From the NCBI GenBank assembly GCA_037576195.1, contig CM075101.1, forward strand, positions 41,974,001 to 42,038,000: a stretch of 64,000 nt of DNA, given 5' to 3'. The notes below the pieces were generated by a model. That model was not told the DNA's origin. It saw only the letters and a list, made by a program, of their open reading frames with translations, and searched no databases. This DNA is from Phytoseiulus persimilis. Lineage: Eukaryota; Arthropoda; Arachnida; Mesostigmata; Phytoseiidae. Positions within the stretch are counted from its first letter, which is position 1. Each line of letters opens with the position of its first letter. Position numbers and translations under genes: made by a program. Below are positions 7,471 to 62,446 of the stretch, in pieces.

Positions 7471-7508
7471 GCTCATAATCGTTTTTGGCTCACTTTCAGG
7501 TAAGAAGC
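7471..7508 (+). promoter_or_regulatory. Ratchet (recursive splice) site 1: 3'SS fused to 5'SS
   Basis: A branch-like CTCAT (yUnAy, A at 7475) is followed by a T/C-rich tract, then CAG ending at 7499, directly joined to GTAAGA from 7500. A 3' splice site abutting a 5' splice site with no exon between is the defining form of a recursive splice site, known from long introns in flies and vertebrates. The reading frame after the junction stays open to 7694, so a small exon beginning at 7500 is an alternative. A weaker CAG|GTAATT at 7753/7754 could act as its donor. Confidence 0.45.
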
Positions 7509-7753
7509 AACGTCAGCGACGAAGATGATGTCGATGAAGTCCACCGGACGACGGCCGCAACGATCCACGACTGTGTGGAAATCGGTGACACGCGAAGGAT
7601 CTCCGTAATGATCCTTACAGGCACAAACTCACACACAGAAACGCACGCAGAAACAAACACGCTCACAAACGGACACTTAATAGACGGAATGTGACGGCGA
7701 ATAACACGACGGTAGCCAGTTCTCTCGGTCATAATGACGATCTTCGCTCTCAG
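7500..7753 (+). other. Possible transient RS-exon or cassette exon after site 1
   Basis: The stretch is bounded by the 3' splice site at 7499 and by CAG|GTAATT at 7753/7754. The frame starting at 7500 is open for 65 codons and begins VRSNVSDEDDVDEVHRTT, an acidic, protein-like stretch, then stops at 7692-7694 inside the interval. As a full exon it would carry a premature stop, which is typical of a regulatory RS-exon and not of a constitutive one. The donor is weak (GTAATT), so confidence is low. Confidence 0.15.
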
Positions 7754-10702
7754 GTAATTTCTGTATTCCGTACGCAATCGCCACTCGTATGCAGCCGGGT
7801 GAGCGGCTGGCCGGTGGGATCTTTAATTCCGTAATTTTTCCCGCCCCCTCCGGAACTGCCGGGACTTCCCCGATGGAAAAACACGGCTCTGTTTGATTCT
7901 TCCCAGAACAATGTTGAATCGCCCTACGAGATATGAGGAGCGGCTGCGCAACACCCTGGGAAATGAAGTCAAACCGGTGCAGGAGTCTGGTTTGAAGAAG
8001 CATTCAAAATGGAGCATTTTCTTTCGGCGCGAAATTCGGAAGGACTGCGGTTTTTCCCTGGTTTTGTTCCTATCGGGTACTTGTTCGTTTGGAACTTCTG
8101 GAAAATCAAGAAGTCAAGGCAGGCTCCTATGGGAACGACGTGGTCCACACAATTGGTGGCCGCGGGTCGTCGAATCGAACGACACAGATCGGCTTCAACA
8201 AAACGATTGAGGAGACTCACAGCAGACATAAAGAAACACTCATAGTCTCTCACTAAGTGCTCTGTTTCCGGAGGTCATCACCAGAGATGAGGAGTGCTAC
8301 CATAAACAGCGACCCGTGAAGGAATAGAGCCTCGATCTCCGTCCGAGGACATCGCTCGTAGGCGTCAATACGAATGAGCGAACGGAAGCTCGCACTCGAG
8401 CGTCTGTTCCCGAGCATGTCCTGCCGCCGCCAACAATCAAAAACTGTTCTCCTGAAAGTGCATTGATGGGACCGCCCTCCGGTCCGAGTCGCATGCGTCC
8501 CTGGCCACATCGGCGCAAAGCAGGGTTTGCGGAGGTGGAGTAGAAAGAACTGCTCGGGAACTGTTCTTCATCGTGGAGGAACTTGAAACTGTTCTGGAGG
8601 CAGTCCGACGGACCGGCCGACCGAGCGAGCGACAGACGAACAGGCCGTTCGGCAGTCAGGCAAGCTGGCAGTCAACGATCGTCTAATGGTTCTACAATTA
8701 TCCCACAACACAAGAGGCCGTGCGGCTAGCACCAAGAAAGAGAAAAAAAAAACGGAAAACGCGCGCGCACCGAATGACTTTTGACATTCCGAAAGCGACA
8801 GAAAGAGAACAGCGCAACCCGTCGACAACGACGACATAGACGATGGCTCTGAGGCGGTGGCGGCAACAACAACAGCGAATGAACCGATCCGCACTCTATC
8901 ATCGAGTTGTGCGCCAGAAAATGTGTTTCTCGTATGTCCTCTCCGTTCCCCAGTCCCGGTGTCATGACCAAGTCTCTCCCGCGGACCAAAGTACTGCACG
9001 CCCCGTCGTTACTACCATTGTGGCGGCTGTCCCCCGTGCGCGGCCATACCCAGCCCAAGTTTCGCTCGAGCGTCCCCTCCGAACAGGTGGAAGAGAAATA
9101 TTCGAATGAAGTTGGAAAAGTTTGCTATTCGATGGGTTTGTTCCACCGCTTCTCCTGCGTGCTCGCCACGTTGACTGCTTGCATGCCTGTGAATGGGAGT
9201 CGCTTTCAAAACTACCGAAAGCGTCATAAAATCTGCATTGCCAGCCCTCCGCTTCACTCGGCAGCAGCCGCTGGCCCGCTCACCCTCCCGAGGCCCTTGG
9301 ACTTTGTTGGTCAATCGCTCGACCGGAACAGCGGGTCCGGCGGATGCAGCACCTTGGAGTCCGAGCTTATGTTGGCTTTCCACCGAGTGGCTGGGACCGA
9401 GGACCGGGGCGAGCTGAACGGCCAGGAGTCCGCTCAGGATGAACAGGGGATTCGATTGTGCGTAGCCAGATCACTGTGAGCAAGCGGGGAATCCATTTGT
9501 GCGACCGAGACAGTTCGCGAACACATTTATATCGACTCGATCCCCCAATCGATTTCCCTCGATGACTCCGCCCGCAGCGCACGGTATCGCTTCAAGTTCC
9601 GCCGAATCCCACTTCATTCCCGTTTTCGATTTTTCCCCCCGATCTTCGTGGGGCGGAGCAGAATTTCCTAATCGTTTGTCAGATCTTCCCAGAGGAAATT
9701 TCGCTGGGCCTCTCCGAGTTGCTCGTTCGTTGGGAGAAGTTGAGCGAAGTTCCCTCGCTGTCCTGGCTCGTCGGACGGAGAGGGAGTATAACAGAGTTGA
9801 TGGGGATTCTTGGCTTGGAATGCGCTCATCCTGAGGAATCCTGATCTCATCTTTGCTGGTGGCGCAGTGGTGTCAGCGGCGGGAGGATACATTGGAGGGT
9901 AGGAGGAAATCTTAGGAGAAGAATCCTCGGACACACACACGCGGAGACGTCCAGACGCAAACAAATCACCGAAATACAAAAAGGGGCAAAAGAGAATGGA
10001 ATACAGTTCGCTGGAACCACTGCTCGTGAAGTCTGGACTCGCTTGACTTGGCCTGCCGCTGCTGTCCTGAGAGCTGGAAGCAGGACGCTGCAGCACATTG
10101 TCCAGGAAGCTCCTCCGGGGCAACTGCCATCAACTGCAGGCAGCCAGCTGTACCTACACAGCGCCTCAAGCGAGATTCCGACAGCAACAGATGTCTTGGA
10201 GGAGGGAGCATCGAGGGCCACCGGGAGTTTAACTTCTGAGAGTTCGGCTAACCGGTGATGCAGACAGGCAAGCTACCGACGTATCCCTGAGAGAACAAGC
10301 AATCAGAGTGGAATCAGCGCTTGTTGCTCGTTCGTTCTGAGCATCGGGTTCCACACCGGCTCGGAGCCGGTGTACCGCTTTGCTGTGACGCTCGTGGAGT
10401 TGACGGTGGAGCACCTAGTTTTTAATGCCGTTGCCTTTTCCCTCGTCGGCTGGGACCTCCGGTAGTCCAGCAGTCCGCTGGTCGGTGGTGGCAGGTTCGA
10501 AGTGATCTCAAAGGGGAGATGCAGCCCTAGGCTCTGTTTTACAACCGGAGCCCTTTCTACGGCCATTTATCTACGAACAGAATGCAAGAGCGCGGCGGTG
10601 GTAGCTGTGAGGCGGATCTTGCTGGTTCTACTTCCTTCTGAGTAGCTAATGTTATCTTTTTTGATATACAACCCGCGCCTTTATGGCCGCTTTATAGGTT
10701 CT

Positions 10703-10710
10703 GTAAGTAG
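10703..10710 (+). promoter_or_regulatory. Strong unpaired 5' splice-site match (GTAAGTAG)
   Basis: GTAAGTAG is close to the full metazoan donor consensus. No convincing coding exon precedes it. A possible acceptor ends at CTTCCTTCTGAG near 10641, but the sequence between is short and not recognisable. It may be a cryptic donor. Confidence 0.15.
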
Positions 10711-10717
10711 TGCTCTG

Positions 10718-10728
10718 CCCCCCCCCCC
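10718..10728. repeat. Poly-C run (C11)
   Basis: Eleven consecutive C. It lies 15 bases downstream of the GTAAGTAG donor-like word. Confidence 0.95.
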
Positions 10729-11782
10729 ACCTCAACTCTTGCGCTTTCTTCTGAGATATGTTCGCTGCAAGTGGGGAACCTTCGCTTCGCCTTCTGTGGT
10801 TCCGTGTAAACCACGCAAAGTCGGCTCCTCGAGATTCAATTCATGCCCTGCTTCGGAAGTGGAGGTTGCGTCTTGAGTAGTGAGAGCAGCCGAGCGCCTG
10901 GCGCTACGTCCGAAATCGGGACTTTTGTTCGTCTGCGGCACATTGCCGGAGCGCACCTCGTCTGAGAGCTTCTCCCCCTTTGAGGATCGCGGTCTGCCTT
11001 CGCGTTGCGCCTCTCGAACTCCCAACAGTTCCACGTTTGAACTGGCTGCTGTCTCCGCTAGATGCGCTACTATTTGTGGTTGCAACGGTGGTGGCGGCAG
11101 ATCCAAGTCGGAAGAATTTCTTATAAGGCCACCGGATATTTATCCGCTTTTGGTTTTGAAGTTTATTCTTCTCCAATCGTGACGGCACCGTCGGCGCTCC
11201 GGGCTGCCGCCCTGACGAAATCCAACAAAAGACAAAAACATGTGGGTGTTCAAATTGTTGCTCACCGACGCCACTCACTGTCGAAGATTGAATTCGGAGC
11301 TGACGCTCCTTTCGGCGCAGTTCCGATTTTTCTCTCGAATAATTTTTCCAATCGAAAAAAAATCGAGTCGAGAAAAACTGACCCTCATCCAAACATGCAC
11401 TTCGAACGCTTCATGGCGCCGATTTCATGACCGACGCCGGAACGGGACAACAGTCTTCGGACGAATTTGGTGGATATTCTCCGTGGCGAGCGAGACCGAA
11501 GTGACGATCAGAGTTGATTCCAGACTGAGATTTGAGTTTGAGATCGTACGAGAACGAGGCTTCTCAGGGCCGTTTCTCGCGAGACACCGTTCATTGACAG
11601 TGTAATTCTTCTCTATGAGGTAATTGGAGCGACGTCTGTGGCGAGCGGGCTAGCAAACATTAGAACGGGCCAGCGAGACGAGAGGCTAGCCGACCAACCG
11701 ACCGAGCGGTCGGCAGCACGTCGACTGTCTAGAGACATAGAATTTATGTTCTTATGGCCGGCGGGCTGGGCGAAGCATCGTT

Positions 11783-11800
11783 TGCCTGCCTGCCTGCTTG
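11783..11800. repeat. (TGCC)n tetranucleotide tract
   Basis: Four TGCC-type units. A similar CTGC tract occurs at 15897-15911. Confidence 0.9.
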
Positions 11801-14023
11801 CCCGCTGAAATGAATGCGGCCTTATCGGCGAAATCGCACCGAGTTCTCAAGGGATCCACATAGCTGCTGCAGGAGCTACTGTCGCTGCTGGCCATAACAA
11901 TAATCATTTGGGATTTCGTTATATTTTTCTCGCCATGTTTTTTCGTTATGTTTCCCTCTCCTTCTCGTTCCGAACGTGTTTTCCCCTGCACGCGCACAAC
12001 TCTGAACGACCCCGTTTGAACTTGAAGAGAATACTGAAGAAAGCGTCCAGAGGAATATCAACATATATTCCATAAGTCGGCTTCTTCCGCGCTCGCTCTC
12101 GCGCCACAAGAACTCGGCTTTCGAGGCACCCTGGAATTCGCATCTCTTCTCTTGAATGGTTTTCAAACGATCATCTGGAGCGGCTCGCGCTTACCAACTC
12201 TTTACAGAACAGTTCGAGTCCGCTGGATACACAGGAGTCCAAGAGGAACGCGTCGTTGACCTTCTCTGCCGAGCTCGGTCGTCCAGCTAGCTGCCCTGTC
12301 CGCCTACAGAACCGTCGGTCACTCAGTCAGCCGGCTGGACCGTCTGGTCGACCTATCGGGTTGACCGGTGATGGATTTTCGGACCAATTTCCACCACAAA
12401 GTTCTTTCTACTCGTATTTTTATCCACTGAGGAGATTCCTCCGCCGCTCCGCTCGCTTTAGACCACCTGCTAACTCTGAAGCGGTCTGAGGCGGACGTCG
12501 TGGGCTCTGATTTGATAAGTTCCGCGTTCTTGTGAGAAGAATGAGAGGGGGGAAGTTGCATTGTTGGCCAAGCACAAACTCCGCGAACGAAACTGCCGTT
12601 CTTTTGTTGCTATAGAGTGAGTACATGCAAATGTATATTCAGTACCATCGCTCTTGGCATCGAGGGATCTTTGGCATCGTCATTGACTACGGAGTTAGTC
12701 TAGACATGTGAAACTGGATTCCAGGATGGATAAGATGGCGAATGACATGGGATCGTGCCGATCCCCACAAGTTTTCCGACGTTTCACGGAAAGCTCGGCG
12801 AATCTCGCTTTTGTGACCGAGACCCCTAACATCAGTCCGTCCCTTCACGGTCGATTTTTGTGGCATGTTAGGTGGTCGGACATTCACCGGGTCGAAAGCA
12901 AGCCACAGGAATGGGGAGGGGAGCGATCATCCCGCGCTCGTTCCCCCGCTAGGGACGAATATGGATATTCGAGTAAAGTTGCCCGGTCAACTTGGTGGTA
13001 ACTTCGAGCAGCACTGTTTGCCAGCTGTTACCTCGTCGCCGCCGCTCTGGCCGTCGTCGGCCGGCTGGGAGCACAAGACGTGATAGAAAATCATTACCAG
13101 CTACCCGGACGGCTTGCAGGACAGCTTACCGGATAGCTGGCTGGCGGGACGATAGCGAGCATGCTTCAGATTTAGCTGCCCGATCACATGAGGGACGAGT
13201 TTTTGTGCTACGTGACACCCTATCCGCAGATGGCTCAAGCACGTGGCTTGTTCCTGTCGGTGGTCTTGTTCAGGAGGCCCGTTGTTGATATCGCCTCCGA
13301 ATCGGGTGCTGTCGTTGAGGGCGTATGATGTCATCATCCCCGTTGAGAGAAGCCCCCGCTTCTCATTCTGTTTCTTCCGGGTTCCCGTGTGACCTTCGTG
13401 TTCCTGTCCTCTCTTGGCTCTCACGGATAGCTTCGGCGCTCGGTCGCGCCCTCCATCCATTGCGCGCTTTTTCGCGAATCGCGTATCGCCGCCGCGCAGA
13501 GTTCCTCGGGACCTCCCGTGGGCACGCCGGGAGGGGCGGAGGAGTCGCGGGAGCCATCGATCAATGCTCGTCGATTCAACAACTGTTAAAAGTTTGTTGG
13601 GCAGGAAAAAAAGATGCGTCTCCGGCACAAGACTAACTGGATAGCTGTCCGGCGCACAGCAAATACCATCGGCGAGCAAGCGGAGGGTATTGTTCGAGGC
13701 GAGCATTCAGCCTGAAGACCATTACCGGCCGAGTCATTTTTCTCCGGGCGGCGAGCTCTGCGAATCCTTTCGTCTGCTCGGTTTCGCTCCTTGACAAACG
13801 CACTCCTTGCAAAACAGCCGCAGCTGCTGGTTTGATCGTTTGTTCGTTTTTCCATCGTCGTGCCTAAGTTTCCCGCTAGGTTTCCTCTCAGAGTGGGTTG
13901 TGTTTCAAGCTCAGACTGGGACTCCACCGGAGTCGCCAAGGAAATGTTGCAATAATCCATCTGTTTCCTCGTCTCGCGACCCAACAAGGAAACTAATTCG
14001 TTGGCAAGCTGTTCGGAGGACCC

Positions 14024-14041
14024 GTCAGTCAGTCAGTCAGC
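14024..14041. repeat. (GTCA)4 tetranucleotide tract
   Basis: Four perfect GTCA units followed by a partial unit. Confidence 0.95.
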
Positions 14042-15848
14042 TTACACGTTTGTCAAACATCCGAGCGGGCATTCCAGTCGCGCTCGGAGCGCGTCGGTTC
14101 TGCAGCCAGTCCGCGCACTTGAGGACGGGGGGCACGCGGCAGCAGAGCAACATAGAAGAGCGCCACGTAATTAAAAGTTATTCCTCGAAGACTTCGAGCC
14201 GGGCTTTGATCTCTCCTCGGAGGCGTTGGTAAGACGAGGCTCCGCAGGACGGCGAACAGGGAACCGGGACCGCGGCGGGAGGGGTGGGGAACACTGCGCA
14301 GCAGGAGACGACGGCAAGTGCAGTTGCGAATTCCTCCGTGGCGGCATGAACAAGTTAATCGCAAGAGACTCCGAGGAGCAGCGGCGACTGCCAGAGTAGT
14401 TTTTGATGAGCACGGCGCAGAGAGCGATTTCATGCCCACGACCCGCTGTGGCGACTCCCGCGGCCTGACGAACCTCTTCATCAAGCGGTTTCCTTGCCGA
14501 CTGCGTGGAATGGCTCCTGCCCTTGGCAGCGCGGTTATTGCGACGGGTGCCGTACCGACCGACGCTGGCGACGGCAGTTGTTGTTGTAGACACACTAAGT
14601 TGTCACGGCCCCGGAGGCGAGCTCTCAGCTGATCGGTCCAATAGCAGACTAGCGACATCACTGCCGGTTTGCCTACTTGCCCCTGGCCGTCAAACAGAAT
14701 GAGCAAAAAAGGAGAACTTGGGGCTTTCGGCACGTGAGCGGCGCCTGTTAGCGCTCGACTCGTCGCGCGCGAAACTTGTTCGTCGACGCGTTTCCCCGGG
14801 CTGTCGTCCGCGGAACTTCGCGAGCTCGGAGTCGACGGCATCAGAAACAACAAGCAGCCAGGGCCCAGCGAAACGGAGATGGCTTTCTCTAGAGGCTTCT
14901 TCAAATATCGGCGACCGTGCGCTCCTGCTCACTCCAAATCGTTCACCTCCCCGTTCAGTCCTAACGGGTCGACCCGCCGGCGAGCTCGATTCATCTATCG
15001 ATCGGGCCATCGAGCGTGTCTGGCCCAGGACCTTCCGATGTGGCGGTCGCACCGAGACCCAAGGCCCAGGACGAACGACGCATGTGGGGCTAATGTAGGT
15101 CTAACGACTCTTTGAGCGGGCATAAATATTCATAACTCTCGCACTTCCCCATCGCCGCAATATCTATGCCGAAAGCCGGCGTGGAGGGAGGGCGTGCACT
15201 TAACCACTTATGGTCGATGGGGGATTCTTCCGCGTTTTCTCACTTTTGAGTTGGTAGACGAGGTTGCACTCTCCCTCTATTTCGTCAATCCCCCTCTCCC
15301 CCGCTCGTCGTCCGTCTTCAGTGGGGAATCCGTGTAAGGGGTACCGGGGCGACGGGGCCGTGCTTCCATCAAAAGGCTGCTGCTGCGGAGCGAAGGAAGG
15401 AAGGAAGTCATGAATGGCATTTTTAAGAAGGCATAACGAGAGCTCGATGCAACAGGAAAGGGAGATGGCCCAGGACGCCACCATTAGGAATTGGTCTCGT
15501 CAGGAACTGCACACTTCGAATTCAAAGCGCGAGCCCCCGACGGGTCTCCACTCGGTTCCTTGTCGCTGTTCCCGTGGCTTTCGCTCGTCCTACCGCAGTT
15601 GTGACGACGCCGCCGTAGACGTCGACGCCTCCCCCGCTGCGCATATGTGTGCAAGTGCCTCCGGAATCGATTGCGATTTGGTGCAACAAGCACCGCCGAG
15701 ACCAACTTGGAGGACTAGTTTTCGCCCACACAACGGGCGAACACGACTGGCGTAATAAGACAGCGAAGCCAGTCAACCGCTTCGAACGCAAAGCCAACCA
15801 ACTAAACGACGATCAGCCAACCCAAGCAAAGCGTAACCTGCGCATAAC

Positions 15849-15911
15849 GACGTCAGCCTCAAACTCCGACTAATTGACGTCTATATATACTACCACTGCC
15901 TGCCTGCCTGC
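15849..15911 (+). promoter_or_regulatory. Promoter-like patch: two TGACGTC motifs and TATATATA
   Basis: GACGTCA (15849-15855; TGACGTC on the - strand) and TGACGTC (15875-15881) resemble CREB/ATF-type elements in opposite orientation. The second is immediately followed by TATATATA (15882-15889), then a CTGC repeat (15897-15911). A transcript starting about 30 bases past the TATA motif would begin near 15.91-15.92 kb. No coding exon is recognisable downstream, so this could be an enhancer, an antisense promoter or chance. Confidence 0.2.
15897..15911. repeat. (CTGC)n tetranucleotide tract
   Basis: Three to four CTGC units directly downstream of the TATATATA motif. Confidence 0.9.
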
Positions 15912-18900
15912 TAGCAGCCCGCGACGGACCCGCCAGCATCCACTCCTCCGGAGCGACCCGAACTCAGTGGGTGGCGGGCGGGCGGGCAGCTTCTGCGGCA
16001 AGCGCGCGCCGAAGAGTCACGCCGAGAACCACCAGCAAGCCAAGCATCGTGGGGAGGAGTCTACTATCAGAAACTTTTCGCTTTTTCCCCCGCCACAATA
16101 ATGTTGCAAGCCAACCGAAAGCACTCGATGATGTCCTCCAACTTGGAACTTCGAGGTGAACGGTTCCCGTGTGCAGGAAGTGTGGGACGGAGCTAGAACC
16201 GTGGTTCTCGAAGCCTCCATGCATCGGCCACCGTCCAGGGCGCCGCTTTGCAACATCAGAGTCGCTCCCAGACGAGAAGTTTCTCTGATTCCGGGCAGCA
16301 TACCCGATCTGATCCGTGAAGGGATCCGAAACAAGAGAATCCAGCGCGGGCGGAGGGACGGGAAACAAGAGGAGAGAAAGATGCTCAGAAGTCTTGAATA
16401 CACGACGAGGCAACGGCGGGAGTTGCGTGCGTGCGTGCCCGCGTGTGTCCGGCCTGCTCCCAATATACATGCTAAGTAGGCACATCTGGTCGAATGGTAA
16501 CCTATTTCGATTAATGTCTCCGGCCGCAGGCTATTCGACCTGACCGCCGAACGTCCAACCACCGAAACTATTTGGATGGATGCCCGAGCCATGAGAACAT
16601 GTTAACAACGAAAGCCCCTCCACCACCATCGGAATCCCCCTCGAAACTTGCGAAACGAGAGTGAGCTAACATCTTTTTGGGGCGTCGGACTTCGATGATC
16701 CATGAGGTGCTGACTTGCAATACGTGCCCCGGCCAACCACTCCGGGATAATGTATCTTTTGGCCTGGGCTTTCCTCGGGGGCTCCTTTCGTTGGCAAAGG
16801 GCGGCCGGCCGCACCAAGTGACCTAACCCCGTCGTCACCTTGCTCTGGAGCTCAACTCGCCTCTTGGCTTAGTTGCTTCGTGCGGTTTTGAGTCGAAACT
16901 GCACAGCCTGGATATCACAGCTGGTTGCTGGACCGCCTCCGGTCGGGGTTCGCGTCCCCGTGAACGTTGGCGATGCCGACTCGGACCCAGCCGAACCAAA
17001 TCCAGAAAAGCTGATTGGTATGCAGACCACCACGCGTACCGCTTGGGACTGATTGCAGCCGAAGACTGGTTTGTTTGAACACCACGGAAGCTCGGCGTCT
17101 GCCCATTCGTCGGTCTTCCGGGTCGGTTTTCCCTTCTCCCGCTGGACCGTGCTGTCCTTCCGTTTCGACGCACTCCGGATGACGTCGAATCACTGGGGAT
17201 ATCAATTTTTCGCACTTCGGGCTCTCGGAGCGACGTTGCACGTAGCCGGTGATGGCCGCGCGGCGCGGGACAGCGCCTTCATGGCCACCTGACTGCAAGG
17301 TGCCACGATTGATGTCTTCAACAACAACGCAAACTCATTTGGAGTACCGCCAGCAGGATCGGATACGATAACGCTCACAGCATGCACGTCGTTCCCATGG
17401 CTTCTAGCAGTCTGTGCGATACCAGCAATCTCGAAAACTCACTCCAACTGACCGCAGCACAAGCGCTCTATCGAGCTCGAGTGGTCGACACTCAGAAAAA
17501 AAAAATCAAACCTTGGCGCCCGCTTTCTAGTCCGACGAATGAATGGACGTGCAAGAACGCGCCATGGGGACCGGGGGCCCGGGGTTCGCTACGGAGGAAA
17601 CTACAATAAGCTGCCGCGGGAGATGGAGCCAAGTCGGTCGTTGACGGAGTTTTGTATGTAGAGTGCGTGATGCGGAAGATCGTGAGAGCTCATTGCTTTG
17701 ACGGCTCGCGATGTTTGTTCTGACGATCAGCCCTGGCGGCTGTGACTCATTGACCGCAGCTTAGGCTCCCTCACGGGCGGACAACGACGACGCCGCCGCC
17801 GCCGAACGAGCTCCTCACCGGCCATAAATCGTTTTTACGAACTCCACCGGCTGCTTTTCGAAGCGAGCGCTCGTTTTGCTTTTTCAGACACTCTCTTGGA
17901 AATTCCATCGTCGATGCGCCGTTCGCACTTCGGCTCTCCTCTGAATACCGAGCGTTTTTTTTCTCTACTTCTTTCTACTTTCCTCCGCTTATCCGGCTCG
18001 CCGTGGGCTTGGCCCTTCGGACGATGCATCGCTTTGCCTCCAGCATGCATTCTGGTTGACAGAAGGGAAGGGATCCGAACCGCCCCCACGCTTCTTCTGA
18101 CAACTCCTGACGCGCGAACCGACAGCATCTTCCGTGGACGGACGAAGTTCTCGAGCAGGCCGAGGCCTTTCTCTCTCCCTGCACCGCCGTGCCGGACAAC
18201 CGCAGAACACGCTCTTCGCGAAAAGGACGACGAGAAATCAGGGGGTGAACTCGGGAGAGTGGGAAGGCTCGCTTGACGGGATCGGGCGCAACGACTCACG
18301 TTCATAGGCTCCGAGGCTCCGAAGTTTTTGAATTTTCGCGCTCTTTTGTGGAGATCGGCAGTCGGACAGACGGACGGATGAGAAACGCCACCGGACCACG
18401 GGGAAAAGTTCGGCTCGGAGAACAGATGACTTCGAGAAAAAGCGACGCGGTTCAACGAACTGCCACCGATTTGTGTATATTATTCTATATAGTTCTATAA
18501 TAGACGGCCTCGGACGGGAGCAATTTTGAACACACAACCGAACTCCATTGTCCGGTCGGGCCGGACCGGCGGAGCCCTACACTACGCCCGGCTGGCAAGT
18601 TGCTCGGATCGCCTGAAAGATGTAATTTTCCAGTAGTATCACTTCCAGCTCCCGGCAATTCGCTCTGCGTGCTCCGTTGTTGTTCTCAAGGGTATTAGCA
18701 GGACGCTCGTACGAAACTTGAGTTATGATGTTCCGCTGGCCCAGTCTCTCGGTAGCACATTCTTTTGGGAATGGGCATCTCCGCTCCGACAGCAGGATCC
18801 TCCGAGCGCCTCCGGAGCCACATCTGCCGGGAGACTGAGAAATTCCTGCGGTTTCATTTTTGCGAAGTCCCGCCACAAATGGATGGACCGCTCGTTCGTT

Positions 18901-19075
18901 GCGCAGTTGTTTTGTTTTTCCGTTTGGGTCTCTCGAGAACGGAGCCGACAGGGATTCGTAACCGGCTGGATCCGGGACTGAGAGGTCTCACAAGTGAAGT
19001 CTCGCTGTCGACCGGTCAGGATTTAGTGAGACGACACCCTTGGAATTGGAATTTCGCACGACGATTCAACGGAGA

Positions 19076-19798: not shown

Positions 19799-19799
19799 G

Positions 19800-51670: not shown

Positions 51671-52576
51671 CGTAGATGGAGATAATATTGATAATTGTCG
51701 AGCACCAGATGTTCTGGATCAGACCGAGCAGCCGACCGCGACCAGACGACGGCCATAGAAATAGGGAATCCGAGCGACCGACGGCCCGTCCCTCCGTTCC
51801 TGCTGCTCCCGCCGCTGCGGCCAACCGGCTAACAGCCAGCGAGGCAGCCACTCCATCTGACCAATTGTCACGAAACGGACAAATTTTCGTCGGGTGCATA
51901 CTTTGCCGCGCGTACCCTTGGTGGAGTCCGAGCTCTCGATGTAGCAGTTTCATTTCGGGTATCGGGCCGACGCGGTGCCCGCATAAATGGATAGGTGAAT
52001 GACTTTATGATTTTTTGCAACGAATGACCTTGATGTATCCATTTTTCCGCTCATCGTATCAGAGTTCATGCCGAATTGGTTCCTTCCACGACAGCAGTAG
52101 CCGATCGGAGGAACGCTTCCAAGATTTTCGATGTCGGCTCGGCTCAATCCGAAAGACGATCTTGTCGAAATCCCAGGTTAAACCATTCGAAAAGTTCTAC
52201 TGTAACCAGTTTTGTGCGAAACATGTTTTCCTTCAAGGGAGCGAGCGATCAACGACTGGCGTTAATTCGAGGGGGCTTGGGCCGATCACTTCTCACCATA
52301 TAAAGCAATACCGTGTGGAATGGATGGTTAACGATTAATCCTCGGTCGCGAACGATATCTGCTAATCATCGATAGGTCGAAGTTATCTGCAACTCATCGC
52401 TTCACTGTTAGTCAGCATTGATACTCTACGAACAGTTTGCTCACGGTTGCGCGGTCGTGAGATGAATCACGTTTGCGGCGCTATCAGTTACAGATATCCG
52501 CTCCTCCGGCCGGATCGCCTCCCGATGGTTCCCGGTCCGGAGCTGCATTCGGAGATGTATCCATTCGGAATAAAAT

Positions 52577-52609
52577 CTCTAACATTTCTTCTCCGTTCCA
52601 GGTGAGCTT
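52577..52609 (+). promoter_or_regulatory. Ratchet (recursive splice) site 4: 3'SS fused to 5'SS
   Basis: A perfect CTAAC branch motif (52579-52583, A at 52582) lies 19 bases from the acceptor AG. Pyrimidine tract ATTTCTTCTCCGTTCCAG ends at 52601 and is joined to GTGAGC. Forty-seven bases on, a second GTGAGC donor (52649) gives a compact RS-exon. The geometry matches known recursive sites closely. Confidence 0.5.
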
Positions 52610-52648
52610 CGGAGCTAATTCCCATCCGGTATCGTTTCGGAAGATTAA
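52602..52648 (+). other. Putative 47-base RS-exon of ratchet site 4
   Basis: Bounded by the acceptor at 52601 and GTGAGCG from 52649. In the frame set by the junction it reads VSFGANSHPVSFRKIK and then meets TGA at the donor boundary. If both donors compete, using 52602 keeps the exon out and using 52649 includes it. Confidence 0.2.
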
Positions 52649-54310
52649 GTGAGCGCCGCTCCTGCAGAGGGTTGGTTCTGTTTCGCTTCACAATCTAAAT
52701 ATAACTTCAGGCGAATGACAGGCTTCGAGAGACGACAATGAGTCGCTTGGCACTCCTTTCCGTGACAATATCCGAATAGAGAGAGGGAGGAAACTTTTTA
52801 CCATCCTGCGACAGACTCAAAAGTGAGAAGCTTATTCTGTTTGACAGTGGTGTCAAAAGGAATTCTGAGATATCGTTCGAAAAGCAAAAACGGGTCGATG
52901 GAAAGACGGAACCGAGACTTCTGATAGCGTTTTCGATCCCTTGTCCCTCTTGAATGTGTCTGACTCGAGCGATTTTGGTGGCGAAAATTTTTGTTTGGTT
53001 GGCATCAAGAAGACCATTGACGAAGGAAGATGTCGCCCACGAATAGCGTACTGATTCACGGCACGTTGTTTGCCGACCGCAATAGAAGCAGCAGCAAACG
53101 CCGCCCTGAAACGTGCGACACGAACCCAAGTTCGTGACTCCGGCACTTCCTACTTTTAGGTTTTGTCTCTAACAAGGCAGTTGTTGGCCATGTTTTTTTT
53201 GGGTAGCGTTCGAATTTCTCCGCAACAATGCCTCGGAATGGGATGCTGCTGCTGGGAGAATCGTCTGCGTTCCCAGCCAAGCGGAGTGTGAGCCGGGAAT
53301 TTCGACCTGAAAATGTTCAAAGTCCCGATAATATTCTTGTCTTGCGAGAATTCAGCCTGTCGTCCTCAAAAGCTCGTCGTCGCAAAAATTCGAGATTCAG
53401 TGTCATAAATTTCACCTGCCCTGGCTCCATCTGCCGTTTTGCCGTTCGGATTTCCTGGAACCGGCGTAGAACCGAGAGAATGAGCGAACGTTTGGACTGA
53501 GCCCGAGCCTCTCTCCTCCCTGTTTGTGGCAAGTAACTCCCCGAATGGAGATTTAAACAAGCCTCCGCGCACGCATCCGTTCTCAGGCTGACTGTCTCGT
53601 GCGTCGTCTTGAGAGATGAAGATGAATACACGCCGAATAGAGGGAGCACGCTGCACCGTGAGGAGCAACGCTGCCGCCCCATCGCCGTGGAGACAAAATG
53701 AAGAAGAACAAATCCCTGGGGTGGCCTTCGTCGTCTCTGGCAGCGGCGTCTGCTACGACGATCCCGTGCTCCTGGTGCCGAGCAAGGGTTGAGATGACTC
53801 ACTGCAGCGGGTACGTGTGTTCGTTGTGATCGCGGTGCCCGGCGTTTTAGAGCGTTCTGCTCATGCGTCCAGTTTGTCTGCCTGCTCCAGACCATACAGA
53901 GAGAACTACTTCTGTGGTGAGTCTCGTACTCGCGGCAACATTCCCCAGACTTCGAAAACGGTTCTCTCTGACGTAGGCGACAAGAACGCTTCAAGTCCGC
54001 GCCAGCCCCACTGAGGATCTTTTGTTTCAATGACTCATCGCAATCCACGTTCTGAGTTCTGACCGGCGTGTGCACCGCGAGTCGTGATGCACAAGTTCGG
54101 ATATCTGGTGATGGAACGTGTTCCTGAACTTGGAGAGACCATTGCAGCTTGCACATGTAGACTCCGGGGAACAACCCGAGCTCCGAAAATTCGCTCTGCT
54201 CAGGCCGGTCGGTATTCATGAGCGAGAAAAATGAACGCAGAAGAAACAATTCATGTGCGCGCGGTCCCACTGAATGACCAAATACTACCAACGAGTGGCC
54301 TACCGACTTG

Positions 54311-54327
54311 CCGGCCGGCCGGCCGGC
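54311..54327. repeat. (CCGG)4 self-complementary tract
   Basis: Four CCGG units in a row, fully palindromic. Confidence 0.95.
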
Positions 54328-57300
54328 CCGCTGGCGGGTTGACGTGTGGGAGTTAGAAGCCAACTTGGGCTCAGTAGTCGTGGGTCAGTACCCTCAGCTG
54401 ACGGTACTGACTGGCCGACGACTGAGTGACTGATTCCGTTCTTCCCTCATTTCTACCAAAGGTCGCGTACGCTACGTTTCTCTGTTTGCCGGAGCTTAAG
54501 ATTCGCTGAACGCAGCGCTTATGTGAAAGCCGTAGAGTAGCCAAATGTATTTACCACCGGTAACGATTCGAGCGCCGTCGCCGCAGCCAACGCTCAGCAG
54601 CCATCAGGATGGCGGTCAGAAAAGATACACGCACAAAACCTTGGTCACTTAAACTCAGTCTGCCGACTTCCTTTCTGTGTAGTACCCGCCCTCGTGAGCA
54701 ATGACCGACCGCGCTCGGCCTGATCAGACGGACGGATGTCCGGACGTAGGGTGGATGGATGAACAAACGCCTATGGATCTCTTTTCGAAAAAGCTCTGGT
54801 GGTCCAATTGAGTGAGGCTCGAAGCTGAAGTTCGCGAGGGACAACGTCGGTGGCGGCAGGGCCGACAGAAAATGTTCGAGTCTTTGAATGCGGAAGGTTC
54901 TATTGCCACGAGGCGTGTTTTCCTTTTCGTGTCGAGAACCACCGTGCTCGCCGTGGAATTCCGAGGGGAATCGAGCCAACGAGGCAAGACGCTTCCCAGG
55001 GCTGATAGTTCGGCTCGAGGAGGCCGGCCAGCCGACGACGAGGCAAACCTTCGACAATTCGTTTGCTTGCGCCACTGGGAAGCCCACAACAAACGAACGG
55101 GCTCTGCTATCGATGCATATCAACAATTCGTTGCCTGTCTAAATATAGAGTCTGCTACTGTGCGGGCTGTCAGCTCGCCGCGCCGCCGCCGGAGCCATTA
55201 GCTCGTATGTATGTATTGAACGATCGGAGGGAGAATGGAAGCGGGCAAACCGCTAGCTATGCATCCAGCTAGCAAGGAAAGCCATTGTTGTGAGGGAATT
55301 TCTTCCGGGCCGCCTGCCAGATCCTGCTTGATGGGCCGACCTAGTGAACCGCTCGCCCATCCTAGTTGCCAGCTTTCTCGAACCGGTTCCTCAACCAGCC
55401 TGCAAATCGCTCACCTGCTCGAGTGGCTCCAGCCGTTCAGAATGGCTTAGCCCGATCAGAGAATTCGTCGGCGTTCCTATCCTATTAGGGAGACGTTACG
55501 TGACGACTAATTCGGCCAGAAACAAACGTCGTCGATCAAGCCGACCGCGAAGCGGGAGAGCGACTCAACCAGGCGACCACGACAGACCAGACAAGCGAGT
55601 TGAGAGACGCAGCGACCGAAAGGAATGCGAACAGGCTTCCCACCGCAAATCTTTACCGAATGAATTCATTCGCCCATCAGCGTCTCAGTGCGCCGGCACA
55701 CGAAGGGACACGCACAAAATTCATTAACACTTGTTCGCTCGATTATCTTGCCGAGAGGTTCTTGCACTTAGTGCTCGGATGGGGCGAGCGGCCGCGGAAC
55801 AACAAAATAAATATCGAATCTGTGCTCATCGAGACAGTGCTGCCTCTCATGGACGGAGAAAAGCAGCTGGAGAAACGACATCGGCATCAGACGGTATGCT
55901 GCAGACATTAACCTTTGCTTGGGGGCAGTGATCACGTTGATTTCTGCAGGCGCTGCGGTCCCATGTCGGAGTCACGTACGAGAAGGCCAGTCTGGCTACG
56001 GGACGAGGAGAGGGACAGCAGTGCGAAATGCCCCGGCCAGGGGTGGGTGATACGACAGTGACAGCTGGAGACGTAACGGGACGGAGCCGGGTGAAACCCC
56101 GAGGATCCGATCTGGCCAACCTACAACCCCGTACTCCCGTCCTGTCCGTCTGGCAGACCCACGGACGGGCGGGCGGCCGGACGCCCCAGCGAGTGGTTTC
56201 GAATCGAAACCATTTTTCATAATTATCTGTGGCGTAAGCCGGCCTCGAAAACACCATTAACAGGGCGCTCGCGCTGATCTCTCTCGCTCCCCACCGCAAC
56301 GCTTGGCTGTAGGTCTGCCTGAAGGACCGTCTCTGAATCCGTCTGTACATACGAACGATCGGGATAATGCCCGTCGGTTCGACGCACGGGGAACCAATCG
56401 GCCGAACCAAACGTTCGGCTTTAATTCAAACATCGCCTAATTGGATCCCTAGCGGCCGAGCGGCTCGCTCGGGAACGCAGGCGGAGCGGAATCAAAGAGA
56501 AGGAGCTCAGGGAATCAAAGTGTCAAATGAACATGGAAGTTCTTCCTCTCGAGACAAATCTTGAAAAGATAATTCGAGCCCAATCGAGCTGATCTGCGGA
56601 CGATCGATGAGGAGAAAGAAGACCCTGACGCGATCGGGCCCGATTCGAAAAGACGTCTCGGAGTGACGATGGAACGGGAAATTACTTTTTCCAGCAAGAG
56701 TCATTGAAAGCCTTCACAACCACGAAAACGCTGAGGCCCCAGCGAGAAAGATCATTGAGGGAATTAACCACGAGGAGGCACAAACTAACATTTAAGCCGA
56801 CGCTGCGACTTCGAGTGCCGTCGTAACAAGGCTGGAAACTTTGGCCTCTTGCTGACTCTGTCTTCCTCGTGAGGAAGGCGTCACGCTACGATTTCCCCAC
56901 AGCGACCGGCTTTCGCACCGACGGGCTCCGAGAACAGGGGCACAGTTTCTTGAGTGGCGGTCGTCCTCGAGTTCATTCTTGACGTGCTTTTCCACAGTTT
57001 CTCGAGTCGTAACCAATCATCTCTGTGAGTGGCGTCAGAGGAGAGCGGCTGCGACGCGGAATTCTTTAGGATTTAGGATCGACTTCCCGAGGAGTTTTCG
57101 GTCGTCGTTGGCTCAGCCTGCGGACATCTCGCTTGATAATCTTCTGCTATCGCACGAACTTCGAAAAATCGCCAGACGGCTTAGAGCGCGGATCTGCGAC
57201 GACCACGACCCGGGCTATCCGAAGCGAGAGGCTCACAAACAGAAAACGGTCGGAGTCTATGATCGCGTAGGCTCTCGGCGGACCGAGAAAGCCGAACTCC

Positions 57301-58410
57301 ACTCGATCTCAACGGAGTTCGCGTGTGCGAGGCAAGTTTGTTTAGTGGCGATGGCTGGCCCCAATTTGTGTGGGAAATGACGTTTTTATGCCTGCGTAGC
57401 AGACCTTGTATCTGGCTACTGACAGACACAGAATGTCTGACAGAACCCGCAGACGATACTCGGCCGCACTGCATTGTCTTCGGAGTAGATCGTGGCACCG
57501 GACGAGAACGATTCGAATGAGTGACGAGCGACGCGACGCTCGCTCCATCCATCCGACGGCTCGAGGCCTCATGACCGCTTATGCATGGACGCTGATTAGG
57601 GAGGCCGAGTTTTTTGTACATTGGATCAATTGAATGTCTCACACGCGGGAAGAGATGGTGGCGAACCCGTGCCGTGAGATACTATCCCGCGGACTGACAT
57701 CGAAGTGATGAAGGATAAGATCAAAGACCGGATGGCGGAATCCGTATCGAGCAGAACTTTCCCGGAACGAAGCTCTCCGGAAAAGCGAAGGTCGCGGCCC
57801 TCCGAGACGGAGGAAGTTCCGCATCCGATACCGACAGGACAAGATCCGAGATAGGATCGAAATTCAGACCGAACAAAGTTTCTAAATTGGCATCGAAAGA
57901 CTCCTCTCTGTGATCTCCCGTTCTGTCGGAGCGATCCCGGAGGCGACAAGATCCACCTTGTCCTCTCTGCGGTCGTCCTCGTGCGGCCGCCAATTCAGTC
58001 GCGTAGACAAAACGAGAAACCAGTTCAAGGAAAATCGGTAACCGCCAGTGATGACGATCGCCGCTTCAGTAACGCTGGCTGTCGTGCGGATGTCCGCGAT
58101 CTCAGTAGAGTGACTCAGCAGAAGTTTCAGCGACGAATTCGTCGACCAGCCTGCTTCCGTGGTAGATAACTGAGCTGGCGGAGGCGGCGGGCTTGCTCGC
58201 GAGAGAACACCGACACATACACACTCATCTCCTCGGGAAGGCATATACCGCATACCTACTAGTATGTGGCGATCGCGGTCGGTGTCAGTGGGAGGAAGAC
58301 ATATGTGGTATGCCTCCCAACTTGTCTTGTGAGACGTCGGCGAGCCAGTGGCGCACGCACATGCCACTCCATTGGCCTCTTTCATGGAGCCGACCGCTTC
58401 TACTGGAGCC

Positions 58411-58447
58411 TATATATCAATATATGTATTCGTTAGCATATATATGC
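58411..58447. repeat. TA-rich patch with 12-bp palindrome
   Basis: TATATATCAATATATG is followed 10 bases later by GCATATATATGC (58436-58447), a perfect 12-base palindrome, in otherwise GC-rich sequence. It could hold a TATA-type core, but no Inr or exon is recognised. Confidence 0.6.
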
Positions 58448-59161
58448 GATCCAGGCCCTGAACCGATCGCCTGCAGCCGCCGCCGCTGCTGGCCAGTGGC
58501 AAATGACCGGCTCCGAAATACATATTTTGAATTTCAATTCGATCGCGTCTCTGTCGAAGGAACTTCCTTCTCTTCTGATTGTCGTCGTCGTCGTCTCGGT
58601 TGCTGATGTAGAAGCGGCGGAGAGAGCTCGAGGAGTGCGCGGCGTTGTCGTTTCTGCATTTTGTTTTCCCAAGAAGCGACACGACTTCCAATCGGCTTCT
58701 CTTCAGGCGTGCAGTCTGTCTGCACACTCGCGCAGATTGCCGGATCGACACCGGCGGCCGAACAAGTTATCAGATTCTCGCAGTCCTCTCCTGAGCGGAG
58801 TCTCTGTTCTCGAGCTTCCCTCTCGATTTCCGACGGATCTCGGAGCTCATCTCACGAGACGTTGCCGAAGTAGCGAGCGCCCGGACCGAACTCCCATCGG
58901 AAACTTTGCTTCGCAGGCAGACGGGCATTCCGCACGTAGCTCTTTATTTCTTTATGGCCGGCGGACGGCCGCAATAGCCTTAATACAAGTACTGGTTATC
59001 TGTGTATCACTCGCTCTGGCTAGATCTCCGCTAGATCGTGGGTGGTGAGCACGGCCACACAAAATGATTAAACAAGGCCTGACAAGTGGATTGACCAATA
59101 AATACCGTCGGAGTCTTGCCTACCGAGGGAATTATTTTACAAGGCGACCAAACGTGGACTT

Positions 59162-59175
59162 CCCCCCCCCCCCCC
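59162..59175. repeat. Poly-C run (C14)
   Basis: Fourteen consecutive C. Confidence 0.95.
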
Positions 59176-60798
59176 GTCCGACCGTTCCGCGGATGACTAC
59201 CCAGACTCGAATACTGACCTATGGTGACGTCATAATGGCGAAGTATTCGTCCACCTCAAGTTCGCGACTCTCGGCCCGCGATTTTTGTGAAAATCGGTCG
59301 GCAGTCATGGGAGATCACGATCCAGTCTGGCTCGGAAAATCCCAGACACTGAGCTCAGAGGCGGCCGAAAGAGCGGCGAAGACTCGAGTTGAAGCGGGTG
59401 CCACCTGCAAGATTCGCTTCGCAGCGCCCGCGACCGTGCAAGGCCTTGTATGCCGTAACGAGGCTCGCCGCGCATTTTGTTTAATGATGTCATTGTGATT
59501 TCGAGAAGCAGGGCTGTGGTACATTGAACCAAGACACCGTTGGCTGCTTCACACCTTCCTGCACCCGCTAACAACTTACTCCCCGACTTTGGCTGAACCA
59601 ACTGCTGTTGTCGAGCCGAATTTCCTTGCTTGGAAGATTTCTGTAGTTCTACTGTGATTCTTTTTTTTTCGTTCGGGAGGACCAACGAGTCCGGTTTATC
59701 GTTGTGAAACTAGTTAGCGCATAGACCAAGCATTCCTTTTGAGGGGAAGTGATGGCCCGTCAAGTCGACTGTCTATGGTCTGGGGGAACTCCAGTGCGGT
59801 TTGATTGGAATTGAACAGTTAATCTTCACAGTATAGTGATGAGCCCACGACACGTCACAGCGGATCACATCCACCTCTGTTGAGAGACGACCCGCCTCGG
59901 AACACATGAATCGTTCCGGACCCACCGGAGGAAAGAGAACATTACAGGCGACCTCTACTTTTTAGAGCCTTGATTGGGCTTTATGACGGGACCTTCACCA
60001 AATGTACTACGCTACGATAACCAAACACAATGCTCAGTCGAGCTGGCTCGCGCGCTCGAGTGGCTTGATAAGCTCCGGTTTTTATGAAAGTCGAACGTAG
60101 TGGTCACCATGTCGAACATGATTTTCCCTCTCGTCGTGATTGCGATCGCGCGGATTGTCAGAGTTGCGCTGTTTGTGAATGCTGCCGCGCCCCGCATATT
60201 TCTGTCGAGTTTTTGCCTCGTCGTAGGTGGTTGCAGCGGCATTGTCGGCTGCAGCCTCTCCGAAACGATGCAACAACGGCTTAGGGTGAGCCAGCAGAAA
60301 TGTTGTTTCCTTTTCCTCGTCGTCGTCAGCGGTGCCAGCGAACGAGCAATGCTTTCCGAGAAGCGTTCTCACACCAATTCATAAAAATGTTCCTTCCCCG
60401 ATCCTCTCTCTGGGGTGTACAATAGTGATACCATCGGAGTGGCCGCCGCCGCCGCCACCGTCTTCGCAAACTCTGCTATCGCAGCGGCTGCCGACATCCT
60501 TGGGAATAATATCATGTGAGACAGCGAAAACGCGAATGGAAACGAGAGAGGGGGGAGCGCGGGCTCGGAGATGTGTTGCGGGAACGGGGCCGCGTGTCAA
60601 ACAAGCTGCTGATCACGTAATCGGGAGCACAATGGATCCCGCTCTACATGTCAAGTCCAGAGACGGAGTGGACTTGTATTACGAGAACACAATCAAACAG
60701 AACACCGTTGACTATCGGCATAAGGGTGCATAGGAACAGCGAACGCCGCGAGGGAACACCAGAAATACAGAGATTTGTATCTCCATCGAACCAGAGGC

Positions 60799-60813
60799 GG
60801 GGGGGGGGGGGGG
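60799..60813. repeat. Poly-G run (G15)
   Basis: Fifteen consecutive G, the longest homopolymer after A16 at 4606. Confidence 0.95.
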
Positions 60814-62016
60814 CAGCGACGAAGTCCTGCTCTCGAGGCACAGTTATAATTGCACTCGAAACCGGAGAGTGGGAGATATGAGCCGGCGCGGGCTCGGTGA
60901 GATTTTGTTTGCGCGCCAAACAAATCTGGCATACCGAGCCATAAATGTTTTATTTCCTCGTGGGCGGAAGCCAGCTAGGCCAAGAACGTGGCGCAGCGGT
61001 CGCACAACTCGAGCGTCGGGATCAAGCGGATGTCAGGAACTCTTCGCCGAGCGCCGTTTTATTCAATGAGAATGCCTCTTCTCGTCTCCAGGTTCGGAGG
61101 AGCAGTTTGTCCGTCGTATGTTCATTCGAGTGGCCATTCCCGTTGCGAAAGCCCAGACAGGAGAGCACATACCTATAAACACAAGAGCGAGTCCTGCGTG
61201 TGGGATTTTGTAGCTTTTTTTTGTAGAGGAATTCCGTTTGATGTGTTTCGTCGCCTGTGGCATTCCATGTCCCATTGTTGCTGTGCTCGCCCTTGTCGGC
61301 ATCTTTGTTGTTGCTGGCAGCGGGGTCTTTGTTGTCGCCCTGCAGTCATAAACGCGGCCCACGGAAGAGCTCTTCCGTCGAATATTGAAATCAGATATCA
61401 ATCTTCCGGAGCATGGCTGTTAGTCGCCAGGACTATTAGCGGAGCTAGCTGAAAAAGTTTCCTCCTTCCCGCTCGCTCTCCGTCCCTTATCCTGGAGCTT
61501 CTTGCGAGCATGGCAAGAAAACTCGCTGGATGTCTGTTCGGCTCAGGATGTGCGCGGCTTGATCTACTCCCAGCCCGCTAACGACGACGACGTCTCGCTC
61601 GGTTCACTCGTTCGACTTGTTCCCGGCTAGACCGGCGCAGGCAGCATCTCCTCCTCATTTTCCTTCCTGATACCTCACACTGAGTTCTCCTCCATCATCC
61701 TCCGCCGTTCGCTCCGGGCCACTGGCGGACCGGACCAGCAAGCTAAGCAGCTTGCTTGGTCGATACTCGCTGAACCCTTCAACGTCATCGCCGGTAGCAA
61801 GGGCAGCAAATTAACCGAATCAACGTCTTAGCCTCCTGCACGCGAGGGACCGAACGAACAAACCCTCGAGTGCATGGGCTCAGGATAGGTGCTCGTTTGG
61901 ATGGCCACAGATTTGCTCACGCAATCCCAACACATTGCTCCTCTTCAAGGAACGGACTCGAGACGACGGTGGTTATCGGGTTATGACCCGCTCCCGACGA
62001 ACACGACTCGAGTCCA

Positions 62017-62038
62017 TCCCGCGGAATCGAACGCGGGA
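62017..62038. repeat. 7-bp inverted repeat (hairpin)
   Basis: TCCCGCG (62017-62023), an 8-base loop GAATCGAA and CGCGGGA (62032-62038). The - strand loop TTCGATTC resembles a tRNA T-loop, but no A box or acceptor stem is found. Confidence 0.6.
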
Positions 62039-62406
62039 CTCTCTGTTCCGCTCCCTTCTCGATTGAACTCGATCCCGATTCCACCGTCAGCCTTTTCGCG
62101 ACTGCTCGCTGTTGCGATGAACAAGAATTTATTTTTTTATAGCTCCCCGATCGGGTCCCGTGTTCGGAGATGGTTTTAGTGGTGTCGACCGGGTGGCGGA
62201 GCGGACGAGAAGGAAAAAAGGCCACGGCTGAATATTCTCAGCTTCGTTCCGTTCTCAAGCTACGCGGTCATGATTCAGCCGGTCGAGCCGTCATTCAGTC
62301 GAGTAGTTCTCGCGGTGCGCCACTCAGCGATCCGAGTTAGTTCCTGGGAGCGATAGAGGAAGCGCGGAGACGGAGCTCACATCTGTCGCCCCCTCCCCTC
62401 TTTTCC

Positions 62407-62446
62407 TTATTAACTCACCCGTCTATTCCGTTCCGCAGGTAAGACA
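62407..62446 (+). promoter_or_regulatory. Ratchet (recursive splice) site 5: 3'SS fused to 5'SS
   Basis: TTAAC branch-like motif (A at 62413), tract CCCGTCTATTCCGTTCCG, then CAG ending at 62438, joined to GTAAGA. Two further donor-like words follow: ATG|GTACGT at 62531/62532 and ATG|GTAAGC at 62929/62930, giving an RS-exon of 93 or 491 bases. The frame from the junction stays open through the first of these. Confidence 0.5.

What the first reader, a model, noticed from the sequence alone, without database searches (positions are those of the whole stretch)
7471..62446. Five evenly spread ratchet-like (recursive) splice sites, all on the + strand
Seen directly: at 7499, 19102, 39376, 52601 and 62438 a pyrimidine tract plus CAG is fused to GTAAG or GTGAG. 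Each has a branch-like motif 19-25 bases upstream. Spacing is about 11.6, 20.3, 13.2 and 9.8 kb. By eye each strand has six AGGTRAG words; five of the + ones sit behind a good pyrimidine tract and none of the - ones (near 26.92, 28.81, 29.73, 47.16, 48.98 and 55.41 kb) does. Known: recursive splicing of long introns, first described in Drosophila Ubx, uses exactly this zero-length-exon motif. Inference: the window is a giant intron of a + strand gene removed in steps, which would explain 64 kb without a recognisable exon.
Basis: partly seen in the sequence, partly recalled or inferred. Interest (0 to 1): 0.75.

Follow-up and report, generated by a model that had tools for sequence, protein, structure and literature searches.

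The report
Stepwise-splicing site array in giant intron
The five marked spots look like real relay points that let a cell cut out one enormous intron in short steps; they are part of a run of nine, a known trick from fruit flies seen here in what is probably a mite.

Summary
The window holds five tract-CAG|GTRAG fusions on + and none on -; order-2 random sequence gives 0.07 per strand. With 100 kb added on each side they are five of nine. The nine best of 1238 AGGT sites on both strands of 264 kb are all + (scores 16.4-21.7); the best - sites reach 15.9. Spacing is 9.8-25 kb, more even than random (CV 0.30, P=0.0008). The nine lie between a LETM1-domain gene (+) and a Shark-type SH2-ankyrin-SH2-kinase gene (+); 11 window pieces searched for exons gave no accepted match. 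The Shark frame opens with an ATG right behind an acceptor. Best reading: a recursively spliced intron of 166-185 kb, most likely Shark's 5' intron. Genome-wide, tract-CAG|GTRAG words outnumber the GTYAG control 73 to 17. So this is ordinary use of a known mechanism, in a probable mite (species untested). Notable: nine sites (a fly study reports up to seven per intron), and 73 genome-wide sites without an excess of downstream cryptic-exon donors, although the nine-site array does show one. No RNA or related genome could be tested.

The parts
7475..7505 (+). ratchet point (RP) 3 of 9: tract-CAG|GTAAG, junction after 7499
   Evidence: score 17.6; 8th of 1238 AGGT sites in 264 kb
19078..19108 (+). 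RP 4 of 9: tract-CAG|GTGAG, junction after 19102; branch-like TTAAC
   Evidence: (score 21.1; 2nd of 1238)
39352..39382 (+). RP 5 of 9: tract-CAG|GTAAG, junction after 39376; no YTNAY branch motif
   Evidence: (score 19.2; 6th of 1238); 601 bases around it gave one match, itself, in the genome
52577..52607 (+). RP 6 of 9: tract-CAG|GTGAG, junction after 52601; branch-like CTAAC
   Evidence: (score 18.6; 7th of 1238)
62414..62444 (+). RP 7 of 9: tract-CAG|GTAAG, junction after 62438; branch-like TTAAC
   Evidence: (score 16.4; 9th of 1238)
1..64000 (+). inner part of the proposed intron; RPs 1, 2, 8 and 9 lie outside the window at window positions -32167, -12099, 87610 and 105243; proposed intron end (Shark acceptor) at window position 133833
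   Evidence: no accepted Pfam match for 11 + strand window pieces tested

Best explanation
The five sites are ratchet points of recursive splicing, and belong to an array of nine that cuts one giant + strand intron into ten pieces. Proposed working: the upstream exon is first spliced to RP1. The GTRAG that follows the CAG then regenerates a donor at the exon's end. That donor is spliced to RP2, and so on, each step between RPs removing about 10-25 kb while the polymerase moves on. The last step joins the exon to the acceptor in front of the Shark ATG (C1:42107833). Nothing of the RPs stays in the mRNA. Shown: the motifs, strand bias, spacing and gene order. Inferred: transcription, use of the sites, the order of steps, the first exon (somewhere in C1:41923196-41941800) and Shark as the host (about 0.65 given that the array is real).
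For: Nine best of 1238 AGGT sites in 264 kb all on +, scores 16.4-21.7; 20 Markov-1 sequences give 0.55 per strand at 16 or more. Window alone: 5 against 0, null 0.067. Spacings 20.1, 19.6, 11.6, 20.3, 13.2, 9.8, 25.2, 17.6 kb; CV 0.30; P=0.0008 against uniform placement. The genome-wide rate of TTNCAGGTRAG would predict 0.43 on + in the 137-kb array; at least 8 are there (pattern chosen after seeing the sites, the 8 counted by eye). Genome-wide Y10-NCAGGTRAG 73, one-base control GTYAG 17, reversed-pattern control 25; of pairs of strict words within 30 kb 5 of 5 are on one strand, within 60 kb 6 of 8. CTRAY in the branch window in 25 of 73 against 0 of 17 controls (Fisher P=0.002; for YTAAY 19 of 73 against 1 of 17, P=0.06). 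Gene frame: LETM1-domain reading frame that stops after C1:41923195; Shark domains SH2, ankyrin, SH2, SYK/ZAP-70-like kinase from C1:42107834. The donor word GTAAGT (5 on +, 20 on -) and the acceptor word TTTCAG (37 on +, 66 on -) are scarce on + in the interval, 11th and 19th lowest of 4018 six-mers, as expected if decoys are selected against on the transcribed strand.
Against: No RNA evidence and no conservation test was possible. The - strand is not empty: two - sites inside the window (41238 and 61173, donors GTAACA and GTATGT) score 15.9, just under the weakest of the nine (16.4); at 15 or more the count is 9 on + to 2 on - (random 0.9), at 14 or more 9 to 4 (random 1.8). One - word outside the window (position 96456) passes the tract rule, and the ninth + site (105243) misses it with 13 of 20. 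The depletion of decoy words is not general: among the 16 words printed GTGAGT is 49 to 43 and GTGAGA 68 to 45 the other way. Counts of strong single acceptors (25 on +, 30 on -) and donors (100, 105) do not differ by strand. The Shark acceptor has an extra AG seven bases upstream, and Shark could have a promoter of its own close by. The last piece (28.6 kb to Shark) is longer than any gap between RPs. Exon 1 was not found. The splice matrices are generic ones recalled from memory, not trained on this genome.
Confidence: 0.8

Rival explanations
1. Real ratchet points, but in another + strand unit between the LETM1-domain gene and Shark: a long non-coding RNA or a gene whose short exons I missed.
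For: The link to Shark rests on order and strand only. My exon search by amino-acid composition is not sensitive: several true Shark exons score low, and only 11 pieces of the interval, all + and all in the window, were tested against Pfam.
Against: No competing + exon was found in that limited search. The Shark ORF has an ATG right behind an acceptor, as expected for a gene with a 5' untranslated exon upstream. Even spacing across the whole 137 kb fits a single intron.
Confidence: 0.25
2. The sites are 3' splice sites in front of ordinary cassette exons or expressed recursive exons (like Ubx microexons) that happen to begin with GTRAG.
For: In the nine-site array the best donor 20-300 bases downstream is stronger than at random intron positions (median 7.6 against 4.7, P=0.001; 20-150 bases P=0.025).
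Against: Genome-wide, 73 strict sites (two of them in this array) show no such donor excess: 12 of 73 with a donor of score 7 or more, against 13 of 73 on the antisense strand. Two of the nine sites have no donor above 4.5 within 300 bases. Nine chance GTRAG exon starts in one interval are implausible given 73 against 17 for the one-base control genome-wide.
Confidence: 0.1
3. Chance: pyrimidine-rich, GT/AG-rich DNA gives such words without function.
For: Words of this kind occur on either strand genome-wide (TTNCAGGTRAG 571 forward, 527 reverse; reversed-pattern control 345 and 332), and some have poor tracts (4 of 20 fetched score below 9). Two - sites in the window score 15.9.
Against: Random models give 0.07 per strand in the window and 0.55 in 264 kb, against 5 and 9 observed, all on one strand.
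Confidence: 0.03
4. The sites were spread by a mobile element that carries an acceptor|donor pair.
For: None found; nine similar sites in a row would be one way to see it.
Against: Searched against the 264 kb, the 1.2-kb surroundings of the nine sites gave, besides themselves, only two short matches of 24 and 33 bases. 601 bases around the site at 39376 gave only themselves in the genome (one of five window sites tested).
Confidence: 0.01

Closest known systems
Intronic ratchet points of Drosophila (recursive splicing; Ubx, kuz, Ten-m)
   Same: Fused acceptor|donor without a retained exon, in very long introns, several per intron, evenly placed (fly pieces typically 9-15 kb; PMC6110457 Results).
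   [quoted passage not shown] gaps of 10-25 kb; GTGAG more often than GTAAG among the 73 genome-wide sites (45 to 28; 4 to 5 in the array); no genome-wide excess of downstream cryptic-exon donors.
Cryptic recursive exons (RS-exons) of flies
   Same: Flies: ratchet points are followed by a short cryptic exon, about 50 nt, whose donor loses to the ratchet donor (PMC8605326 Introduction). The nine-site array has a moderate excess of downstream donors.
   Different: The excess is absent in the 73 genome-wide sites; two of nine array sites lack a candidate above 4.5 within 300 bases.
Computed RP-site excess in long introns of fly, mosquito, bee, beetle and sea urchin
   Same: Excess on the sense strand over the complement (PMC2773006 Table 2).
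   Different: A mite or other chelicerate is not among the five invertebrates of that table. My site definition differs, so densities are not comparable.

Membership tests
Recursive splicing ratchet point | Acceptor (tract + CAG) directly fused to donor (GTRAG) | tested here: met
   five in window, nine in 264 kb
Recursive splicing ratchet point | Enriched on the sense strand over the complement | tested here: met
   Nine best sites all on +; 9 to 0 at score 16, 9 to 2 at 15, 9 to 4 at 14; 8 to 1 by the tract rule in 264 kb. That + is the sense strand is inferred from flanking genes, not from RNA
Recursive splicing ratchet point | Lies inside one very long intron (63% of fly introns over 40 kb have a high-confidence site) | tested here: inconclusive
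   Interval of up to 185 kb between LETM1-domain stop and Shark ATG; no accepted Pfam match in 11 + window pieces; exon 1 not found and exon search of limited sensitivity
Recursive splicing ratchet point | Sites placed to cut the intron into pieces of similar size | tested here: met
   CV 0.30, P=0.0008 against uniform
Recursive splicing ratchet point | Branch point upstream of the acceptor half | tested here: inconclusive
   YTAAY in 4 of 9 array sites (random 5%, P=0.0007) but YTNAY 5 of 9 by the same window (random 33%, P=0.14) and CTRAY 2 of 9 (P=0.17); genome-wide CTRAY 25/73 against 0/17, P=0.002, YTAAY 19/73 against 1/17, P=0.06
Recursive splicing ratchet point | Conservation of the motif among related species | not testable with these tools
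   the genome has no relatives here (stated)
Recursive splicing ratchet point | Junction reads, lariats or saw-tooth density in nascent RNA | not testable with these tools
   no RNA data
Cryptic RS-exon model | Functional donor shortly downstream of the ratchet point | tested here: inconclusive
   array: P=0.025 (20-150 nt), P=0.001 (20-300 nt); genome-wide 73 sites: no excess over antisense or controls
Shark (SYK-family) kinase as host gene | SH2 - ankyrin repeats - SH2 - tyrosine kinase in order on one strand | tested here: met
   Pfam SH2, Ank, SH2; kinase piece: top PDB entry labelled EGFR (9p9u), then ZAP-70 and SYK chains. The name Shark is recalled; that the array lies in this gene is not shown

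The most novel reading that the evidence does not exclude
Recursive splicing is a genome-wide system in a mite lineage, with an intron of up to 185 kb removed in ten steps through nine ratchet points, and most of its ratchet points are truly zero-length: they work without the downstream cryptic-exon donor that the fly model requires, so they would have to be recognised without exon definition.
Probability: 0.25. Interest if true: 0.7.

Novelty: new member of a known kind. Interest (0 to 1): 0.45.

Why it matters
If RNA bears it out, recursive splicing is used in a lineage where my searches found no report of it, and becomes predictable from sequence alone in a compact genome. The 73 genome-wide sites could then test whether a ratchet point needs a cryptic downstream exon. 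The array also gives a clean case for asking why long introns are cut at even intervals.

Tried and rejected
Exon 1: I first took the strong donor at C1:41923026 as Shark's first exon. Reading the sequence showed that it lies in a LETM1-domain coding frame that stops about 170 bases later, so this was dropped. Remaining donor candidates in C1:41923200-41941830 reach at most 9.2; none was chosen.

Mobile-element origin and chance were tested and disfavoured. Rfam gave nothing in the window at its gathering thresholds. Tandem repeats are minor. The 237-codon + ORF of the window (39891-40601) has no Pfam match at E 0.1. Of 10 further window pieces, one had a weak hit below its cut-off (YedD, E=0.06) and nine had none at E 0.5. 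No - strand piece of the window was tested against Pfam. Three pieces outside the interval, searched early, gave one below-cut-off hit (TFA2_Winged_2, E=0.12) and nothing else; one more, upstream of the interval, gave none.

Organism: genome of 181 Mb with four large contigs of 54.7, 52.0, 38.9 and 28.1 Mb; the window is 53.6% GC with CpG observed/expected above 1 in all 16 of its bins; a fatty-acid-binding-protein exon nearby has the mite allergen Der f 13 as best PDB match. From recall this looks like a phytoseiid mite. No paper with matching assembly numbers showed in the listings; I did not test it further.

Literature: recursive splicing with Hymenoptera, with mite, with other arthropod words (none of the 15 listed papers held the phrase, so that search says little) and 'ratchet points' with insects. 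No report in a chelicerate appeared in these four searches of an open-licence library, which is not proof of absence. Papers seen: PMC6110457 abstract and whole Results; PMC2773006 abstract and two sections; PMC8605326 passages and Introduction. Others were seen only in listings.
Full report
Check of the observation. Only these five sit behind a pyrimidine tract: 14-18 of 20, against 8 for the sixth + word and 7-11 for the six - words. For tract plus CAG|GTRAG the window gives 5 on + and 0 on -. Sixty order-2 Markov sequences give 0.067 on average, never more than 1. The branch motif is weaker than claimed: YTAAY at 3 of 5 sites in the window, and nothing fitting YTNAY at 39376.

Beyond the window. 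The window lies at C1:41974001-42038000 of a 181-Mb genome. I fetched 100 kb on each side and scored the AGGT sites of both strands with generic acceptor and donor matrices (recalled, not trained here). Of 1238 sites the nine best are all on +: the five of the window plus window positions -32167, -12099, 87610 and 105243. They score 16.4-21.7; the next + site scores 13.6. The - strand comes close to the weakest of them: two - sites inside the window, at 41238 and 61173, score 15.9, with donors GTAACA and GTATGT. So the count is 9 to 0 at a score of 16, 9 to 2 at 15 and 9 to 4 at 14, where 20 random sequences average 0.55, 0.9 and 1.8 per strand. Two of the four - sites above 14 or so lie near the AK3-like gene or upstream of it (C1:41915638, 41902038). 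The eight gaps between the nine sites run from 9.8 to 25.2 kb; their evenness has P=0.0008 against uniform placement.

Gene frame. On + upstream: ELL (Pfam ELL and Occludin_ELL) and a LETM1-domain protein (PF07766) whose frame stops after C1:41923195. On - between them: an adenylate kinase. Downstream on +: SH2, ankyrin repeats, second SH2 and a kinase piece whose top PDB entry is labelled EGFR and whose next matches are ZAP-70 and SYK, the architecture recalled as Shark. Its reading frame has an ATG at C1:42107834 directly behind TTTCAG. Between C1:41923196 and 42107833 I found no recognised exon, but the search was of limited power: 11 pieces, all + and all in the window, went to Pfam, with one weak, below-cut-off hit (YedD, E=0.06), and several true Shark exons would have ranked low in the composition score by which I chose pieces.

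Genome-wide. The strict word Y10-NCAGGTRAG occurs 73 times; changing one donor base to GTYAG leaves 17, and the reversed pattern gives 25. Pairs of strict words within 30 kb are on one strand in 5 of 5 cases, within 60 kb in 6 of 8. In the first 100 listed places (all on C1) of two looser words, neighbours within 70 kb agree in strand in 22 of 31 (listing) and 17 of 22 (listing), P about 0.015 and 0.017; farther neighbours agree in 36 of 68 and 42 of 77, as by chance. The two lists overlap. Of 20 sites fetched from apparent clusters, four score below 9 and are probably not ratchet points. So the motif appears to be used across the genome, and this array is one example.

Working. The simplest reading is the fly mechanism: exon 1 is joined to RP1, the following GTRAG becomes the new donor, and the process repeats to the Shark acceptor. 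In flies, 63% of introns above 40 kb have a high-confidence site, and pieces are typically 9-15 kb (PMC6110457). RP-site excess over the complement has been computed for fly, mosquito, bee, beetle and sea urchin (PMC2773006).

A point of difference. In flies, ratchet points are said to go with a cryptic exon of about 50 nt and its downstream donor (PMC8605326). In the nine-site array, downstream donors are better than at random positions (P=0.025 for 20-150 nt, P=0.001 for 20-300 nt). In the 73 genome-wide sites they are not: median best score 5.05 against 4.56 antisense and 5.39 in controls, and 12 of 73 with a score of 7 or more against 13 of 73 antisense. The two results conflict. The larger sample suggests that most ratchet points here lack a strong cryptic-exon donor, but I have no fly positive control for this test, and some of the 73 may be ordinary exon starts.

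Strand evidence inside the interval. GTAAGT (5 on +, 20 on -) and TTTCAG (37, 66) rank 11th and 19th lowest of 4018 six-mers for strand bias, as expected if decoy sites are purged on the transcribed strand. The other splice-like words of the 16 printed do not show it as clearly, and GTGAGT (49 to 43) and GTGAGA (68 to 45) go the other way. Strong acceptors and donors overall are balanced.

Verdict. It is a new member of a known kind, in an organism that is probably a mite. The part worth following is the number of steps and the apparent absence of cryptic-exon donors genome-wide.

Noticed in passing
window 39891-40601 (+): A 237-codon open frame, poor in Arg and Ser compared with most long frames here, about 515 bases downstream of the ratchet point at 39376; no Pfam match.
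   Followed up: partly
C1:41916179 (-), window position -57821: A coding exon of the AK3-like gene appears to start with GTAAAG directly behind its acceptor (score 13.1), so an ordinary exon start can look like a weak ratchet point.
   Followed up: no
C3:10662579-10710865 (+), C4:17147242-17177093 (+), C4:21736085-21758729 (-): Further same-strand runs of strict tract-CAG|GTRAG words, 13-28 kb apart: likely further recursively spliced introns.
   Followed up: partly
C1:41923026-42107833: Runs of eight T: 33 on +, 63 on -, although A and T are equally frequent overall.
   Followed up: no
whole genome: Many of the 147 kinase matches span nearly the whole profile in one frame without a stop: the genome seems poor in introns inside coding regions, yet seems to hold introns of over 100 kb.
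   Followed up: no
window 41238 and 61173 (-): Two - strand acceptor|GT fusions with good tracts but donors GTAACA and GTATGT score 15.9; not examined further.
   Followed up: no
window 19800-19867 and 63179-63212: Simple repeats (AGAC)17 and (AG)17.
   Followed up: no
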